Below, piece by piece: positions 51,438-58,266 of a stretch of 64,000 nucleotides of DNA. The stretch spans positions 62,001-126,000 of the forward strand of contig JAEUJM010000032.1 in the NCBI GenBank assembly GCA_016794585.1, written 5' to 3'. This stretch comes from Acidimicrobiales bacterium. GTDB lineage: Bacteria > Actinomycetota > Acidimicrobiia > Acidimicrobiales > DATDAH01. The notes below the pieces were generated by a model. That model saw only the letters and a program-made list of their open reading frames with translations. It was not told the DNA's origin and did no database searches. Within the stretch, counting starts at the first letter, position 1, and the number at the start of each line of letters is the position of its first letter. The position numbers were made by a program, and so were the translations under genes.

Positions 51438-52139
51438 ATGGCACGCGCCCGGCGAGGCCGCTCGCTCGTCGAAGAGGTCCACGCCGCGCTGCGCGAGGAC
51501 ATCCTCTTCGGACGCCGCCTGCCCGGCGAGCGGCTGCAGCTCAACGAGATCGCCGAGCAGCAGGACGTCAGCCTGAGCGTCGTCCGCGAGGCGACGACCC
51601 GTCTGGCGTCCGAGGACCTCGTCGAGGCATCGCCCCAACGGGGGTTCCGGGTCCGCCCGGTGTCCCTGGAGGACCTCCGGGACCTCACCTGGGTGCGCGT
51701 CCAGCTCGAGACGCTGGCGCTGCGGGAGTCGATCGCCAAAGGGGACGTCAGCTGGGAGGCCGACCTCGTGGCTGCCCACCACCGGCTCTCGGCGACGCCG
51801 ATGTTCCTGGACGACGGCACCGGGAACACCGACTGGATGGCGGCACACGGTGCGTTCCACGCCGCGCTCACGTCGGCGGCGGGCAGTCCCATCCTGGAGC
51901 GCCTCCGGCGCCAGCTCTACGACGCCTCCGAGCTCTACCGCTACTGGTCCAGCCTGCTGCCCCGACGCGAACGGCCCCGCGCCACCCCCGACGAGCACAA
52001 GGCCATCTGCGACGCCGCGCTGGCCCGCGACGCCGACCTCGCCGTCCGGCTCCTCACCGAGCACCTCCAGAGGACGGCCGACCTGCTGGCGGGATCGATC
52101 GACGCCATCGAGGCCTCCGAGCTCACGGCCGGCGCCTGA
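51438..52139 (+). CDS. GntR/FadR-family transcription regulator (FCD type)
   Basis: A 233-residue regulator. Residues 1-75 are the winged helix: LVEEVHAALREDILFGRRLP, QLNEIAEQQDVSLSVVREAT and DLVEASPQRGFRV. Residues 85-225 are the helical FCD ligand domain (LRDLTWVRVQLETLALRESI; later H in DEHKAICDAALARD). It would sense an acid intermediate and regulate the transport and degradation genes. Start ATG with GAGGAG upstream. Confidence 0.92.
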   Translation: MARARRGRSLVEEVHAALREDILFGRRLPGERLQLNEIAEQQDVSLSVVREATTRLASEDLVEASPQRGFRVRPVSLEDLRDLTWVRVQLETLALRESIAKGDVSWEADLVAAHHRLSATPMFLDDGTGNTDWMAAHGAFHAALTSAAGSPILERLRRQLYDASELYRYWSSLLPRRERPRATPDEHKAICDAALARDADLAVRLLTEHLQRTADLLAGSIDAIEASELTAGA

Positions 52140-52195
52140 CGGCCAGGGCAGGGCGAGGACCCTGCTCCGTGAGGGGCGCGCTCGACCGGGATCTC

Positions 52196-52296
52196 GGTGC
52201 ATGAATCACGTAACCGCTGGGTAGAAAGGGTTTCGGTGTGCCGGGAAGCCTGGTCGGCGTGATCTTGCCGACCCCTGGAACGGGCCCTCATGCACC
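52196..52296 (+). ncRNA. Candidate structured leader RNA (possible riboswitch) of the mrp operon
   Basis: GGTGCATGA (52196-52204) pairs perfectly with TCATGCACC (52288-52296), closing an 83-base domain. Inside it GGTCGGC/GCCGACC (52252-52258 and 52267-52273) forms a hairpin whose loop GTGATCTT can pair with ATCAC (52205-52209), a pseudoknot. I could not match it to a known riboswitch class. It lies just before the mrp genes, and the closing stem would hide the ATG at 52290. Confidence 0.5.
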
Positions 52297-52400
52297 CCCA
52301 CAACGACCCGCACGCGAGCGCGTCCCGCACCGACACGTGGCTGCTCCTCGTCGCCTGCGATGACGGCCGCGCCATCGAGGCGCTTCGGGGGCCCGGGTAG
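52290..52400 (+). CDS. Possible 36-residue leader peptide before mrpA
   Basis: A short open frame from ATG 52290 to TAG 52398-52400 encoding MHPHNDPHASASRTDTWLLL then 16 more residues. It ends two bases before the mrpA start codon, close enough for translational coupling, and its ATG lies in the closing stem of the candidate leader RNA. No homologue is known to me and there is no strong ribosome site, so it may not be translated. Confidence 0.3.
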   Translation: MHPHNDPHASASRTDTWLLLVACDDGRAIEALRGPG

Positions 52401-52402
52401 CC

Positions 52403-54742
52403 GTGTTGCTCGCACTCATCGGGCTCCACGCCGTGCTCGGCTCGGTGGTCCTGACCGCCGGCCGTCGTCTCGGCCGCTGGGGCCTCCTGATCGGCGGCCT
52501 CGCACCGGCGGTGACCGTGGTCGCCGCCCTCGCGCTTGCCGGACCGGTCCTCGACGGCGACCCGGTGACGTCCTCGGTGTCCTGGGTGCCGCAACTCGGG
52601 CTCGACCTCGATCTGCGTCTCGACGCGTTCTCGCTCCTGATGATCGTCCTCGTGTCGGGCATCGGCACGCTGGTGTTCGTCTACGCCTGGCACTACTTCG
52701 CCCACGCACCGAAGGCGGGGCGGGCCGCGGGACTGCTGACCCTGTTCGCCGGCTCGATGCTGGGGGTCGTCCTGGCCGACAACCTGCTGCTGCTCTACGT
52801 GTTCTGGGAGCTCACCTCGGTCACCTCGTATCTGTTGATCGGCATCGACGACGCCGACCCCGATGCCCGGGCGGCGGCGCTGCACGCCCTCCTGGTCACG
52901 GGGATGGGCGGCCTGGCCATGCTCGGAGGGTTCGTCGTGCTGGGCCAGGACGCCGGCACGTACCAGATCAGCGAGCTGTTGGCCGACCCACCCACGGGGA
53001 CGGCGGCGGCGATCGCCCTGGTGCTCGTGCTGCTGGGAGCGTTCACGAAGTCGGCGCAGTACCCGTTCCACAGCTGGCTGCCGGGCGCGATGGTGGCGCC
53101 CACCCCGATCAGCGCCTACCTGCACTCGGCGGCGATGGTGAAGGCCGGGGTCTACCTCGTCGCCCGGTTCGCGCCGGCGTTCGCACTGGTGGGCGTGTGG
53201 CGGCCGCTGGTGGTGGGCGTCGGCCTCCTCACCATGGTCGCCGGTGGTCTGCGGGCGTTGCGACCCTTCGACCTCAAGCAGCTGCTGGCCTTCGGGACCA
53301 TCAGCCAGCTGGGCTTCCTCATGGTCCTGCTGGGCATCGGGCAGCCGGAGGCGACCGCCGCGGGGTGCGCGCTGCTCCTCGCCCACGGGCTGTTCAAGGT
53401 CGGTCTCTTCATGGTCGTGGGCATCGTCGACCACGAGACCGGCACCCGCGACATCCGTGAGCTGCCGGCCCTCGGCCAGGGGTGGGGCCCGACCCGTGCC
53501 GTCGCGGTGATCAGCGCCGCGTCCATGGCCGCCGTCCCGCTCACCGCCGGGTTCATCGCCAAGGAGAAGGCCTACACCGCCTTCGTCGAAGGTGGCGCCG
53601 GCGACCGGTTGGTGCTCGTGGGCATCGTGGCCGGTTCGATGCTCACCGTCGCGTACAGCCTGCTCTTCGTCGCGGCCCTCCTCCGGCCGGGTGCGGTGGC
53701 CGGCGAGACCGAGCGGAGGGTGGCCGACCACGCCCCGACCACCTGGTTCGTGCTTCCCGGGATCATCGTCGCGACCGCCACGATGGTGCTCGGGATCGCC
53801 CCGGCGCTGTGGTCCGGGCTCGTCGACGCCGCCGCCGGCGCGCTGGATCCCGAGGCGAGCGCGCACCTGAAGCTCTGGCACGGCGTGAACGCGCCGCTGT
53901 TGCTGTCGATGGCCACCCTCGCCGCCGGCGTGGCGATCTTCGCGGCACGGCGCCCGGTCGGACGCGCCCAGGCCCGCCTGGCGCCGACCATCACCGGGCT
54001 CGAGGTGTACGAGGGCGTCGTCCGTGGCGTCCTGCGGTTCGCGGCCCGCACCACCAGCATCGTGCAGTCGGGATCGCTGCCGGTCTACGCCACGATCATC
54101 ATGGCCACCGCCGCTCTGGCTCCGGGGCTCGCCATGGTGACGGGCCCGTGGTGGTCGGGCCTGCCCGAGACCATCGCCCGGCCCGCACACGTGCCCGTGG
54201 CCGTGCTCCTCGTGACCGGGGCGCTCGCCGCCACGTTGGCCACCCGCCGCTTCGCCGCGGTGCTGTTGCTGGGGGTCGTGGGCTACGGGATGGCCGCGCT
54301 GTTCGTGGTGCAGGGCGACCCCGACCTCGCCCTCACCCAGTTCGCGGTCGAGACGCTCTCGGTCGTGGTGTTCCTCCTGGTCCTGCGTCGACTGCCCGAT
54401 CGCTTCGAGCGACGGCGGCCACCGGTGCTCGAGGGGGTCGCCAGGGTGGCCGTGTCGGCCGCGGTCGGGGTCGTCATCGCCGCAGCGGCCTTCGCCACGG
54501 CGGGCGCACGGACGGAGGCGCCGGTCTCGCGCGAGATGTCCGAGCGGGCCCTGCCCGACGGCGACGGCAAGAACGTCGTCAACGTCATCCTCGTCGACAT
54601 CCGCGGCCTCGACACCCTCGGCGAGATCACCGTGCTCGTCGCTGCGGCCATCGGCATCACCGCGCTGGCCCGGGCGGGTCGAGCCCCTGGTTCACGATCG
54701 CCGGGACGCGCCGACCCGGCACCGCAGGAGGTCGAACCGTGA
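52403..54742 (+). CDS. mrpA: Mrp Na+/H+ antiporter subunit A
   Basis: A 779-residue membrane protein, the NuoL-like core of the multi-subunit antiporter, which exports Na+ in exchange for H+. About 20 membrane helices. Conserved segments: LRLDAFSLLMIVLVSGIGTL, NLLLLYVFWELTSVTSYLLI (helix 5 Glu), FTKSAQYPFHSWLPGAMVAP with the essential Lys, and GFIAKEKAY. The C-terminal end (VNVILVDIRGLDTLGEITVL) is the MbhE/subunit-A tail. GTG at 52403; the stop overlaps the mrpB start. Confidence 0.95.
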   Translation: MLLALIGLHAVLGSVVLTAGRRLGRWGLLIGGLAPAVTVVAALALAGPVLDGDPVTSSVSWVPQLGLDLDLRLDAFSLLMIVLVSGIGTLVFVYAWHYFAHAPKAGRAAGLLTLFAGSMLGVVLADNLLLLYVFWELTSVTSYLLIGIDDADPDARAAALHALLVTGMGGLAMLGGFVVLGQDAGTYQISELLADPPTGTAAAIALVLVLLGAFTKSAQYPFHSWLPGAMVAPTPISAYLHSAAMVKAGVYLVARFAPAFALVGVWRPLVVGVGLLTMVAGGLRALRPFDLKQLLAFGTISQLGFLMVLLGIGQPEATAAGCALLLAHGLFKVGLFMVVGIVDHETGTRDIRELPALGQGWGPTRAVAVISAASMAAVPLTAGFIAKEKAYTAFVEGGAGDRLVLVGIVAGSMLTVAYSLLFVAALLRPGAVAGETERRVADHAPTTWFVLPGIIVATATMVLGIAPALWSGLVDAAAGALDPEASAHLKLWHGVNAPLLLSMATLAAGVAIFAARRPVGRAQARLAPTITGLEVYEGVVRGVLRFAARTTSIVQSGSLPVYATIIMATAALAPGLAMVTGPWWSGLPETIARPAHVPVAVLLVTGALAATLATRRFAAVLLLGVVGYGMAALFVVQGDPDLALTQFAVETLSVVVFLLVLRRLPDRFERRRPPVLEGVARVAVSAAVGVVIAAAAFATAGARTEAPVSREMSERALPDGDGKNVVNVILVDIRGLDTLGEITVLVAAAIGITALARAGRAPGSRSPGRADPAPQEVEP

Positions 54743-55224
54743 CGCCGCGCCGATCGCTGATCTTCGACACGACCACGCGCCTGCTCTTCGACGCCACCCT
54801 CGTGCTCTCCGCCTACCTGCTCTTCGCCGGGCACAACCAACCGGGCGGTGGCTTCGTGGGAGGGCTGGTGGCGTCCGCCGCGGTGGCGCTCCGTTACATC
54901 GCCGGTGGCATCGACGAGGTGCGCTCGTTGGTGAACGTCCAGCCGTGGACCTTCCTGGCTGCAGGCCTGGCGCTCGCCGTCGTCACCGCCCTCGTCCCCC
55001 TCGCCCTCGGTGACGGCCCCTTGAACCAGGACGCCTACGAGGTCCAGCTCCAGCTGCTCGGCAAGGTCAAGGCCACGACCGCCACCGTGTTCGACACGGG
55101 GGTGTACCTGATCGTGATCGGCCTCGTCCTCATGATCTTCGAGGGCCTCGGTGACGAGCGCACCGAGCCCGCGGATCTCGCCGAGGCCGATGATCCCGCC
55201 TCGGACGGGGAGGGCGCGCGGTGA
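54739..55224 (+). CDS. mrpB: Mrp antiporter subunit B
   Basis: A 161-residue membrane protein with four helices: TTTRLLFDATLVLSAYLLFA, then GHNQPGGGFVGGLVASAAVA, which is the signature of MnhB/MrpB, then two further helices ending in FDTGVYLIVIGLVLMIFEGL. The acidic C-terminal tail is cytoplasmic. GTG start overlapping mrpA, stop overlapping mrpC. Confidence 0.95.
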   Translation: MTPRRSLIFDTTTRLLFDATLVLSAYLLFAGHNQPGGGFVGGLVASAAVALRYIAGGIDEVRSLVNVQPWTFLAAGLALAVVTALVPLALGDGPLNQDAYEVQLQLLGKVKATTATVFDTGVYLIVIGLVLMIFEGLGDERTEPADLAEADDPASDGEGAR

Positions 55225-55598
55225 ACGTCCTCCTCGTCATCACCGCCGGCTTCCTGTGCGCCTGCGGGACCTACCTGTTGCTGGGCCGCCAGCTCAGCCG
55301 CATCATCATCGGGATCGGCCTGCTCGGCCACGGCATCAACGTCCTGCTCGTGCTCTCGGGCGGCGACGGGGGCGCGCCGGCCTTCGTCGGCGGCGACATC
55401 GACCGCTTCGCCGACCCTCTGCCCCAGGCCCTCGTGCTGACCGCCATCGTGATCACGTTCGGCGTCATCGCCTTCCTCCTGGCCCTCGCCTACCGGAGCT
55501 GGCAGTTCACCGAGGACGACGAGGTCGAGGACGACGTCGAGGACCGCCGCATCGCCCGTGCGTCCCACGAGCACGCCGGCGAGGAGCATCCCTCGTGA
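55221..55598 (+). CDS. mrpC: Mrp antiporter subunit C
   Basis: A 125-residue NuoK-like protein with three helices: VLLVITAGFLCACGTYLLLG, IIIGIGLLGHGINVLLVLSG and ALVLTAIVITFGVIAFLLAL. The DPLPQALVLTAIVI segment is typical of MnhC. Hydrophilic acidic tail. GTG start overlapping the mrpB stop and stop overlapping mrpD start. Confidence 0.95.
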   Translation: MNVLLVITAGFLCACGTYLLLGRQLSRIIIGIGLLGHGINVLLVLSGGDGGAPAFVGGDIDRFADPLPQALVLTAIVITFGVIAFLLALAYRSWQFTEDDEVEDDVEDRRIARASHEHAGEEHPS

Positions 55599-57079
55599 GC
55601 CTCCTCCTCGCCGTGCCCATCCTGCTCCCGCTGCTCGGCGCCGCACTCTCGGTCGGCCTCGGCCGGTCCCGGCAGGCGCAGCGCGTCATCGGGGTGGCCA
55701 CCCTCGCGGTCGTCACCGTGACGAGCGTCGCACTTCTCGTGCGGGTCGACACCGAGGGCATCCAATCCGTCCAGGTCGGCGGTTGGGCCGCTCCGGTCGG
55801 CATCACCCTGGTGGCCGACGGGCTGGCCGCGATCATGCTCGTGGTCGCCGTGCTCATGCTGCTGGCGGTGCTGGTCTACGCCATCGGCCAGCCCGGGGCC
55901 GAGGACGAGCACGTGGGGTTCCACCCCGTGTACCTGATCCTCGCGTCCGGGGTCGCGGCGGCCTTCCTCACGGGTGACCTGTTCAACCTGTTCGTCGCCT
56001 TCGAGGTGACCCTGATGGCGAGCTACGTCCTCATCACCCTCGGGGGCCGGCCCGCGCAGGTGCGCAGCGGCATGACCTACGTCGTGATCAGCCTGATCGC
56101 GTCGCTCCTCTTCCTGCTCGCGCTGGCGTTCGTCTACACGGCCACCGGCACCCTCAACCTGGCCGACCTCAACGACAAGATCGCCGCGCTGCCCGCAGGG
56201 GTGCGCAGCGGGCTCGCCGTCCTGCTCATCGTGGTGTTCGGCATCAAGTCGGCCATCTTCCCGTTGTTCTTCTGGCTGCCCGACTCGTACCCGACGGCCC
56301 CGTCGCCCGTCACCGCGGTCTTCGCCGGGCTGCTCACGAAGGTCGGGGTCTACGCCCTCATCCGGAGCCAGACGCTGCTGTTCCCCCCGGACACCCAGCC
56401 CGGCGACCTGCTGCTGGTGGTGGCGGGGTTGACGATGCTCGTGGGGGTGCTGGGGGCGATCACCCAGAACGACGTGAAGCGGATCCTGTCGTTCCACATC
56501 GTCAGCCAGATCGGCTACATGGTGATGGGCCTCGGGCTGTTCACGCTCGTCGGCCTGGCGGGCGCGGTGCTCTACGTCATCCACCACATCGTGGTGAAGA
56601 CCACCCTCTTCCTCGTCGCCGGGCTCATCGAACTGCGGGCGGGGACGTCCAACCTCGCCAAGCTGTCGGGGGTGGCCCGCCTCGAGCCGCTCCTCGCCAT
56701 CCTCTTCCTGCTCCCCGCGCTCAGCCTCGCCGGCATCCCCCCGTTCTCGGGGTTCGTGGCCAAGCTGGCCCTCGTCGACGCCGGCATCGGGGCCGAGGCG
56801 TACGCCGTGGTCGCGGTGAGCCTCGTGGTCAGCCTCCTCACGCTCTATTCCATGAGCAAGATCTGGGCCAACGCCTTCTGGGGCGCGCACGAGCCGGGAC
56901 CGGCGGTCCCCGCGCTGAGCACTCCCCGGCGGGCGCTCATGGTCTGGTCGACGGGCGGGCTCGTCGTGCTCAGCCTGGGCATCGCCGTGGCGAGCGGCCC
57001 CCTCTACGACCTCTCCGAGCGGGCCGCGGCCGATCTCATCGATCCGACCGCGTACGTCGAGGCGGTGCTGGGCCGATGA
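55595..57079 (+). CDS. mrpD: Mrp antiporter subunit D
   Basis: A 494-residue NuoM/N-like protein with about 14 helices. Key parts: GDLFNLFVAFEVTLMASYVL with its charged helix-5 Glu, GIKSAIFPLFFWLPDSYPTA with the conserved Lys, and FSGFVAKLALVDAG. It forms the second proton-channel-like subunit of the complex. GTG at 55595, overlapping mrpC by four bases; stop overlaps mrpE. Confidence 0.95.
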   Translation: MSLLLAVPILLPLLGAALSVGLGRSRQAQRVIGVATLAVVTVTSVALLVRVDTEGIQSVQVGGWAAPVGITLVADGLAAIMLVVAVLMLLAVLVYAIGQPGAEDEHVGFHPVYLILASGVAAAFLTGDLFNLFVAFEVTLMASYVLITLGGRPAQVRSGMTYVVISLIASLLFLLALAFVYTATGTLNLADLNDKIAALPAGVRSGLAVLLIVVFGIKSAIFPLFFWLPDSYPTAPSPVTAVFAGLLTKVGVYALIRSQTLLFPPDTQPGDLLLVVAGLTMLVGVLGAITQNDVKRILSFHIVSQIGYMVMGLGLFTLVGLAGAVLYVIHHIVVKTTLFLVAGLIELRAGTSNLAKLSGVARLEPLLAILFLLPALSLAGIPPFSGFVAKLALVDAGIGAEAYAVVAVSLVVSLLTLYSMSKIWANAFWGAHEPGPAVPALSTPRRALMVWSTGGLVVLSLGIAVASGPLYDLSERAAADLIDPTAYVEAVLGR

Positions 57080-57597
57080 TGCGGGTCGCTCGGGTCCTGT
57101 TCCTCGTGGGCATCTGGCTCTGCCTGTGGTCGGACCTCTCGGTGGCCAACGTCGTGAGCGGGGTGGTCGTGGCCGTCGCCATCGTGGCCGTGTTCGGTCA
57201 GCGACCCGGCCGCCTCATCGTGCGACCCATCGCCCTGCTGCGCTTCTCCCTGTACTTCATGCGGAAGCTGGTCGAGTCCACCGTCGTCGTGGCCCGAGCG
57301 GTGATCTCCCCGGGGTCGGCGGTGCACACCGGCGTGGTCGCCGTTCCCCTCGAGGGCTGTTCCGACGCGGTCGTCACCCTCATCGCCGACGCCATCAGCC
57401 TCACCCCGGGCACCTTGACCATCGAGGTGCACCAGGACCCGCCCACCCTCTTCGTGCACGCGCTCGACGTGCGGGACGTCTCTCGCGTGCAGGCCGACAT
57501 CCGCACCCTGGAGGTGCTCGCCATCCGCGCCTTCGGGACTGCCGAGGCCATCGAGGGCCTCACCTTCGACGACAGCGTGTCCTGGAGAGGTCGATGA
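57076..57597 (+). CDS. mrpE: Mrp antiporter subunit E
   Basis: A 173-residue protein: two N-terminal helices (VARVLFLVGIWLCLWSDLSV and NVVSGVVVAVAIVAVFG), the positively charged PIALLRFSLYFMRKLVESTV segment, then a cytoplasmic domain with DAISLTPGTLTIEVH, the hallmark of MrpE. Starts ATG overlapping the mrpD stop. Confidence 0.94.
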   Translation: MMRVARVLFLVGIWLCLWSDLSVANVVSGVVVAVAIVAVFGQRPGRLIVRPIALLRFSLYFMRKLVESTVVVARAVISPGSAVHTGVVAVPLEGCSDAVVTLIADAISLTPGTLTIEVHQDPPTLFVHALDVRDVSRVQADIRTLEVLAIRAFGTAEAIEGLTFDDSVSWRGR

Positions 57598-57845
57598 TCA
57601 CCGTCGCGCTCGTGCTCACCGTCTGCGCCGGCCTGTGCTTCCTCGTCCGGGCCGTGGTCGGGCCGTCGCTCGCGGACCGGGTCGTTGCGGTCGACGGTCT
57701 CATCGTCACCATCGTCGCCGGCGTGCTGCTGCACTCCATCCGCATCGACGCCGCCTGGTTCCTCGACGTGGGGATCGTGGCCGCCTTCACGGGCTTCGTC
57801 GGCACCGCGGCCGGCGCCCGCTTCATCGAGCGGCGGGGCGGCTGA
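57594..57845 (+). CDS. mrpF: Mrp antiporter subunit F
   Basis: An 83-residue protein with three helices: ITVALVLTVCAGLCFLVRAV, then the MrpF core GPSLADRVVAVDGLIVTIVA and WFLDVGIVAAFTGFVGTAAG. The polar residues of the core (Asp in ADRVVAVD) are implicated in ion passage. ATG overlapping the mrpE stop; mrpG follows after one base. Confidence 0.94.
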   Translation: MITVALVLTVCAGLCFLVRAVVGPSLADRVVAVDGLIVTIVAGVLLHSIRIDAAWFLDVGIVAAFTGFVGTAAGARFIERRGG

Positions 57846-57846
57846 C

Positions 57847-58266
57847 GTGGCCGACACCGTCATCGGCGTGATCGCCCTCACGGGCGCGCTGCTCGTGCTC
57901 CTCGCCGGGGTGGGGGTGGTGCGGTTCCCGGACGTCTACGCCCGCATGCACGCGGCCACGAAGGCCACGACCCTGGGCATCACCTTCGTCGGCCTCGCGG
58001 CGGCCCTCGCCCTCGAAGGGGTCGGTGCGGGCGTGAAGGTCGTCCTCATCGTCGCGTTCATCTTCACCTCGCCGAGCGTCGCCCACCTGGTGGGCCGGGC
58101 CGCGTACCGGGCCGAGGGCATCGACTTCGACGTCGAGGCCCGCGACGACCTCGCCGAGCGGCTGGCCGAGGCCAACGACCTCGACGTCGAAGCGGGCGCC
58201 GACCTCGCGGAGGTGGTCGTCGAGGCCGAGGACACGGCCCGAGCCGCCGACGCCGGGGGCGCCTGA
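57847..58266 (+). CDS. mrpG: Mrp antiporter subunit G
   Basis: A 139-residue protein. Three helices: VIGVIALTGALLVLLAGVGV, FPDVYARMHAATKATTLGIT, and VVLIVAFIFTSPSVAHLVGR. FPDVYARMHAATKATTLG is the MrpG signature. An unusually long acidic tail of about 45 residues (EARDDLAERLAEANDLDVEA) follows the last helix. Completes the antiporter; GTG start. Confidence 0.94.
   Translation: MADTVIGVIALTGALLVLLAGVGVVRFPDVYARMHAATKATTLGITFVGLAAALALEGVGAGVKVVLIVAFIFTSPSVAHLVGRAAYRAEGIDFDVEARDDLAERLAEANDLDVEAGADLAEVVVEAEDTARAADAGGA

What the first reader, a model, noticed from the sequence alone, without database searches (positions are those of the whole stretch)
52196..52402. Candidate riboswitch-like leader before the Mrp antiporter operon
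A perfect 9-bp closing stem, an internal 7-bp hairpin and a possible loop pseudoknot (GTGAT with ATCAC) form a compact RNA. The closing stem hides the ATG of a 36-residue frame ending two bases before mrpA. Sodium, proton or c-di-AMP control of an antiporter by RNA would be natural, but I find no known class.
Basis: partly seen in the sequence, partly recalled or inferred. Interest (0 to 1): 0.58.

Follow-up and report, generated by a model that had tools for sequence, protein, structure and literature searches.

The report
Small leader RNA of actinobacterial cation-transporter genes
At the predicted start of this sodium/proton pump message lies a 26-letter RNA hairpin that recurs almost unchanged across one large bacterial phylum, mostly in front of genes that move sodium, potassium or protons; it is in no RNA family searched here and looks like an undescribed switch for salt balance.

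Summary
The 9-bp closing stem exists (52196-52204 / 52288-52296), but its 5' strand and the pseudoknot partner lie upstream of the predicted transcript start, 52235. What is conserved is a 26-nt element, 52235-52260: GGHGH-GCCG-GGAAGNCUGGU-CGGC-R. Its exact core occurs in 49 of 296 class genomes (backward control 0) and near-identical copies phylum-wide. 159 of 203 downstream genes fall in cation/proton-transporter groups (112 NhaA; also Mrp, NHE, KimA, Na/Ca exchangers). A -10-like hexamer stands at fixed distance in 117 of 204 sites. The hairpin is supported by compensatory stem changes (7 of 7 variants before associated genes, 1 of 23 others) and U.G/C.A covariation at +5/+25 (151 of 204, 90 expected). 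Nucleotides 18-22 are complementary to CGACC, the most enriched downstream 5-mer, so two exclusive folds are possible. No Rfam 15 family matches. Best reading: a new class of cis-regulatory, riboswitch-like leader for alkali-cation homeostasis, Na+ the likeliest signal. Ligand, transcript start and switching direction are untested; simple release of the ribosome site was not supported by folding.

The parts
52222..52227 (+). -10-like hexamer TAGAAA, 7 nt before predicted +1
   Evidence: sequence; in relatives A2/T6 of a hexamer at -12 or -13 in 117 of 204 sites against 8-17 at four control offsets. Inferred, no transcript data.
52235..52235 (+). predicted transcription start (+1), first G of GGTGT
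   Evidence: G in all 204 aligned sites, fixed distance to the -10-like hexamer; not measured
52235..52260 (+). conserved 26-nt leader element GGTGTGCCGGGAAGCCTGGTCGGCGT
52239..52243 (+). hairpin A, 5' strand (+5 to +9, TGCCG; +5 is the wobble position)
   Evidence: compensatory changes at 6-24, 7-23, 8-22; +5/+25 covariation
52244..52254 (+). near-invariant 11-nt loop GGAAGCCTGGT (+10 to +20); only +15 is free, +17 is sometimes G
   Evidence: exact-pattern retrieval fixes the core in most of these sites
52255..52259 (+). hairpin A, 3' strand (+21 to +25, CGGCG)
   Evidence: as for the 5' strand
52252..52259 (+). 5' strand of alternative helix P2 (GGTCGGCG), overlaps hairpin A
   Evidence: fold; downstream pairing of 18-24 above shuffles
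52266..52273 (+). 3' strand of P2 (TGCCGACC), contains the CGACC box
   Evidence: CGACC in 85 of 204 downstream regions against 19 expected and 15 upstream
52274..52280 (+). CCTGG, able to pair with CCGGG 52241-52245, running into a weak Shine-Dalgarno-like GGAA
   Evidence: fold; CCGGAG enriched in the same region in relatives (33 of 204 against 4.4 expected)
52290..52400 (+). 36-codon frame, probably translated and coupled to mrpA
   Evidence: codon-position G+C 0.75/0.56/0.94, like mrpA 0.74/0.51/0.93; no convincing homolog in 58 other genomes; no Pfam family
52403..54742 (+). mrpA (with MbhD and MbhE domains)
   Evidence: Pfam PF00361, PF00662, PF13244, PF20501
54700..58266 (+). rest of the operon: mrpB, C, D, E, F, G
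   Evidence: Pfam PF04039, PF00420, PF00361, PF01899, PF04066, PF03334

Best explanation
A cis-acting leader RNA at the very 5' end of the mrp transcript. Nucleotides 1-25 fold first, during transcription, into hairpin A: a wobble pair +5.+25 (U.G or C.A), four Watson-Crick pairs and a nearly fixed 11-nt loop that I take to be the sensor. Later RNA offers a CGACC box and often CC(C)GG beside the Shine-Dalgarno, which compete for the same nucleotides (P2, 18-24; and 7-11). The competition sets translation of the first reading frame, here the 36-codon frame coupled to mrpA. The same element before NhaA, Mrp, NHE, Na/Ca exchanger, KimA, Kup and Trk genes points to a signal of Na+ (or Na+/K+) imbalance, read by the RNA itself. 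Shown here: conservation, gene association, hairpin A by covariation, enrichment of the competing box. Inferred: transcript start, folding order, sensing by RNA, Na+ as signal, control at translation.
For: Exact core in 49 of 296 class genomes, 56 sites, backward control 0. Structure-blind model R1: 214 of 346 phylum genomes at E<=0.3, 86 of 346 with best E<=1e-5 by hand count of the listing. Gene groups: NhaA 112, NHE 16, MrpA 11, KimA-like 6, Na/Ca exchanger 4, CitMHS/ArsB 4, cation efflux 2, P-ATPase 2, H+-PPase 1, TrkH 1, together 159 of 203 (one member per group named). Stem variants found without using pairing: four WC pairs in 7 of 7 that precede NhaA or ABC genes, 1 of 23 others, Fisher p 4e-6. 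Two further variants before kup carry A7-U23 (found with a structure-aware model). +5/+25: U.G 101 and C.A 50 of 204; wobble type 151 against 90 expected (maximum of 10000 permutations 111), WC type 18 against 79. Both types occur inside single loci and within NhaA. Pairing of 18-24 with real downstream 0.78 against 0.54 shuffled; CGACC is the top downstream 5-mer.
Against: Forcing hairpin A does not free the Shine-Dalgarno: unpaired 0.41 to 0.38 in 146 sites and 0.37 to 0.31 in the 52 of 204 with CGACC plus a nearby SD. Hairpin A is a median 10.6 kcal/mol less stable than the free ensemble, so it needs a ligand, a protein or folding kinetics. A 26-nt sensor is small for a riboswitch. Some associated genes are not ion transporters (CBS, ABC, hydrolases, PEP synthase). 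On the 26-row alignment the formal pair count is weak (pairs changed on both sides 2, reached by 48 of 500 shuffles), because few rows vary and C.A is not counted. In the window alone the fold is unremarkable (z -0.99).
Confidence: 0.55

Rival explanations
1. A protein-binding RNA hairpin: an undescribed actinobacterial RNA-binding regulator recognises the fixed loop, and the cation signal reaches the RNA through that protein.
For: Same RNA evidence as the best explanation; a fixed loop on a covarying stem is usual for protein sites (general knowledge); large energy gap to the alternative fold.
Against: No regulator gene recurs as the first downstream gene in the groups; none was searched for by co-occurrence.
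Confidence: 0.25
2. A DNA operator just downstream of the -10 box, bound by a repressor; the RNA hairpin is incidental.
For: Fixed distance to the -10-like hexamer; pseudo-palindromic outer letters GCCG/CGGC; very strong sequence conservation.
Against: The +5/+25 states are U.G and C.A, not the complementary letters that a palindrome would favour (WC type 18 of 204 against 79 expected). The inner 11 bp are asymmetric. Downstream sequence complementary to the element is selected. Stem changes before associated genes are compensated, although a palindromic site could also vary symmetrically.
Confidence: 0.08
3. A 5'-terminal stabilising hairpin that protects these mRNAs from 5' decay, without sensing anything.
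For: Position at the predicted extreme 5' end.
Against: Loop nearly fixed, narrow gene set, and selected competition with the CGACC box; a stabiliser needs none of these.
Confidence: 0.07
4. One reading: 9-bp closing stem, inner hairpin and GTGAT/ATCAC pseudoknot.
For: Letters are there; z -1.99 for the 101 nt.
Against: The 5' strand and one pseudoknot partner lie upstream of the predicted +1; the sequence there is not conserved apart from the -10-like hexamer.
Confidence: 0.03

Closest known systems
Li+-I riboswitch (nhaA-I motif, Rfam RF03057)
   Same: Leader RNA before nhaA and other cation transporters; proposed to act on the ribosome site (PMC9646797, passages and the first part of the text read)
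   Different: Model of 55 positions with two stems and another fixed loop region (consensus shown); 0 of 59 relatives over the cut-off and none of the listed weak hits falls on our sites
Na+-I riboswitch (DUF1646 motif, Rfam RF03071)
   Same: Leader RNA of Na+ extrusion genes with a mixed list that includes K+-annotated transporters (PMC9337991, passages read)
   Different: Two extended stems P1 and P2; best match in this genome E 4.06, on another contig
c-di-AMP riboswitch (ydaO/yuaA)
   Same: Controls K+ transporters such as Kdp in Firmicutes (PMC6488665, search listing with start of abstract only; KimA link recalled)
   Different: Much larger RNA (recalled); no Rfam match at any site scanned
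Small compact riboswitches such as preQ1-I (recalled)
   Same: Tiny hairpin-based sensor close to the ribosome site
   Different: No shared family by the Rfam scans; other genes

Membership tests
Li+-I riboswitch, RF03057 | match to the family covariance model over its cut-off | tested here: not met
   0 of 59 genomes over the cut-off; no hit at the sites in all-family scans at gathering score or E<=10
Na+-I riboswitch, RF03071 | match to the family covariance model over its cut-off | tested here: not met
   own genome, best E 4.06 elsewhere; all-family scans as above
c-di-AMP riboswitch, ydaO/yuaA | match to the family covariance model | tested here: not met
   all-family scans: window, window 52100-52450 at E<=10, 20 loci, 15 loci at E<=10, 18 named loci
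cis-regulatory leader RNA | fixed place and orientation before functionally related genes | tested here: met
   179 of 203 downstream frames fall into 16 gene groups, 159 of 203 in cation/proton-transporter groups
cis-regulatory leader RNA | conserved secondary structure with compensatory changes | tested here: met
   weak on the 26-row formal test
riboswitch | direct ligand binding by the RNA | not testable with these tools
   none
riboswitch | two mutually exclusive folds coupled to an expression signal | tested here: inconclusive
   overlapping helices and a selected partner box, but no predicted gain in access to the ribosome site; no terminator in 52100-52450
palindromic DNA operator | symmetric half-sites | tested here: not met
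   outer letters symmetric, but +5/+25 avoid complementary letters and the central 11 bp are asymmetric

The most novel reading that the evidence does not exclude
A further structural class of alkali-cation riboswitch: a 26-nt, transcript-terminal hairpin whose wobble-capped stem and fixed 11-nt loop bind Na+ (or read Na+/K+) directly, controlling a phylum-wide regulon of Na+ extrusion and K+ uptake in Actinomycetota, among the smallest natural sensor RNAs.
Probability: 0.33. Interest if true: 0.9.

Novelty: new variant of a known kind. Interest (0 to 1): 0.74.

Why it matters
How actinobacteria, including antibiotic producers and mycobacteria, sense sodium is, to my knowledge, largely open. 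A single 26-nt element that marks Na+/H+ antiporters, K+ importers and related pumps across the phylum defines a candidate regulon from sequence alone and makes the question directly testable. If the RNA is the sensor, it would be a very small natural ion sensor.

Tried and rejected

Local hairpin B (7-10 with 16-19), the best local fold of the element alone in ViennaRNA: not favoured, because compensated stem changes follow hairpin A and U17-to-G variants break its G9.U17 pair.

Release of the Shine-Dalgarno by hairpin A: tested twice, not supported. Terminator: none found in 52100-52450.

The element as a coding stretch: +5 is C or A in 78 of 204 sites, which removes the GTG at +4 to +6 seen when +5 is T; I take this against a conserved peptide.

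Known nhaA-I or DUF1646 RNA: rejected by model scans (and the all-family scans).

Rows dropped before counts. In one search, 22 of 263 sites (20 loci) were left out as chance pattern hits, and four loci found or fetched through the structure-aware model (L312-L315) were kept out of the structure-blind set; one search then counted every non-standard stem, misses included, except those four loci. Of the intermediate hits, 20 were fetched; of the non-standard stems listed, those in 19 newly fetched loci were read, besides those in loci already held. L156 (Mesorhizobium) has no plausible downstream gene and looks like a chance match. L268 has a compensated stem but precedes a selenium-binding protein gene; left as uncertain. 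In some searches most sites come from searches that fix the core letters, so conservation inside the core is overstated there; searches are the less biased view.

Literature: searches of an open-licence library listed no description of this element that I could recognise; the 2017 survey of 224 motifs was not held, but Rfam 15 was scanned. Many subscription papers could not be seen.

Full report
What is in the window. The region holds a GntR/FCD regulator gene (51438-52139), then the leader, a 36-codon frame (52290-52400) and a complete mrpA-G operon (52403 to 58266). The 101-nt form folds modestly better than shuffles (z -1.99), the whole 207 nt does not (z +0.89). Rfam 15 has nothing here, at gathering score or at E<=10.

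The conserved element. A DNA search with 52190-52310 against 99 genomes (the window's own and relatives of its order) matched 58 at E<=0.1. The strong matches share one stretch, 52240-52258, GCCGGGAAGNCTGGTCGGC. As an exact pattern it occurs in 49 of 296 class genomes (56 sites) with none for the backward control. A sequence-only model of 26 positions hits 214 of 346 phylum genomes at E<=0.3; 86 of 346 have a best E<=1e-5 by my hand count of the listing, and one large genome has ten matches. The window's own genome has a second copy before nhaA (L045).

Gene association. For 203 of 205 distinct sites I took the most coding-like downstream frame and assigned frames by BLAST to 16 representatives: NhaA 112, NHE-type 16, MrpA 11, KimA-like 6, CBS 5, Na/Ca exchanger 4, DUF2254 4, ABC 4, CitMHS/ArsB 4, alpha/beta hydrolase 4, PPDK_N 3, cation efflux 2, P-type ATPase 2, H+-pyrophosphatase 1, TrkH 1, unassigned 24. 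NhaA, NHE, MrpA, KimA-like, Na/Ca exchanger, CitMHS/ArsB, cation efflux, P-type ATPase, H+-pyrophosphatase and TrkH add up to 159 of 203. Group names rest on one member each (Pfam; KimA by similarity to PDB 6s3k, E 4e-29). One unassigned frame has a TrkA_N domain. Two variants found later precede kup (PF02705).

Where the RNA starts. Aligning 204 sites on the core shows T at -12 (101), A at -11 (119) and T at -7 (116), and G at +1 in all 204. A hexamer with A at position 2 and T at position 6 begins at -12 or -13 in 117 of 204 sites against 17, 8, 15 and 8 at four control offsets. In the window this is TAGAAA (52222-52227), whose sixth letter is not T, and +1 is 52235. No transcript data were available. 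The median distance from +1 to the chosen start codon is 61 nt, quartiles 55 and 75, for 191 sites with a start; in the window the 36-codon frame starts 55 nt after +1. Its codon-position composition equals that of mrpA (0.75/0.56/0.94 against 0.74/0.51/0.93), so it is probably translated, but no convincing homolog appeared in 58 other genomes (for the best, L324 at E 0.025, I recognised no mrpA frame around it).

Structure. Two searches could not have favoured pairing: the sequence-only model and a pattern that left both stem strands free. Among the fetched hits with a non-standard stem, all 7 that precede an NhaA or ABC gene keep four Watson-Crick pairs: C7-G23 became U-A (L072/L234, L226, L264, L267), C8-G22 became U-A (L265), G6-C24 became U-A (L227, L260/L270). 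Of 23 others, 1 does (L268, C7-G23 to G-C). Fisher p 4e-6. A structure-aware model then found two kup leaders with A7-U23 and an NHE leader with U7-A23. Pair 5.25 is U.G in 101 and C.A in 50 of 204; the Watson-Crick types are depleted (18, expected 79), the wobble types enriched (151, expected 90; maximum of 10000 permutations 111). U.G and C.A+ have the same wobble geometry (recalled), so this reads as RNA rather than DNA symmetry. Both types occur in one locus (for example L116, L119, L165, L175, L206) and within NhaA (57 and 29), which argues against a simple lineage effect. On the small hand-picked alignment A2 the formal test is weak (2 pairs changed on both sides, 48 of 500 shuffles), and the rival hairpin B gains no support.

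The competing fold. With real downstream sequence nt 18-24 pair downstream with mean probability 0.78, against 0.54 with shuffled downstream (204 sites, p 2e-24). Without any folding, the most enriched downstream 5-mer is CGACC, complement of GGUCG 18-22 (85 of 204; 19 expected; 15 in the upstream control), and CCGGAG is enriched too (33; 4.4 expected; 8 upstream). In the window the partner is TGCCGACC 52266-52273, next to CCTGG 52274-52278, which pairs with CCGGG 52241-52245 in the predicted fold. Hairpin A and P2 use the same nucleotides. Yet forcing hairpin A does not expose the ribosome site in silico, so the direction of switching stays open.

Interpretation. I take it as a cis-regulatory RNA with high confidence (about 0.9), as a switch between hairpin A and P2 with moderate confidence, and as a direct cation sensor with about one chance in three. 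Na+ is preferred because one control on both Na+ exporters and K+ importers fits high Na+ or low K+; a c-di-AMP or pH signal is not excluded. The gene mix resembles that of Na+-I riboswitches, where K+-annotated transporters also occur (PMC9337991, passages).

Known kinds. Not Li+-I, not Na+-I, not in Rfam at the sites scanned. Passages read of PMC11109978, PMC8632094 and PMC6429828 and the paper searches named under Tried and rejected show no such motif.

Noticed in passing
window 52290-52400: 36-codon frame with the codon-position composition of a real gene, stop two bases before mrpA; probably a translated, coupled leader peptide without known relatives.
   Followed up: partly
L116, L165, L175, L206: Divergent pairs of the element some 110-150 bp apart, serving genes on both sides (L116: NhaA and TrkH); some pairs hold one U.G and one C.A type.
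   Followed up: partly
G471 (large genome), C1:374573-378838 and C1:2552292-2594072: Ten model matches in one genome, several clustered within a few kilobases.
   Followed up: no
L217, L218, L219, L224, L312: Loop variant with G instead of U at +17, before MrpA-like, ABC and Na/Ca exchanger-like genes by reading; could mark a changed specificity.
   Followed up: no
L183, L192, L094, L201: The element also precedes universal stress protein, PP2C phosphatase, STAS-like (by reading) and CBS-domain genes, which may be unrecognised members of a cation-stress regulon.
   Followed up: no
window 51438-52139: GntR/FCD-family regulator gene just upstream of the leader, same strand; no sign seen that it is tied to the element elsewhere.
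   Followed up: no
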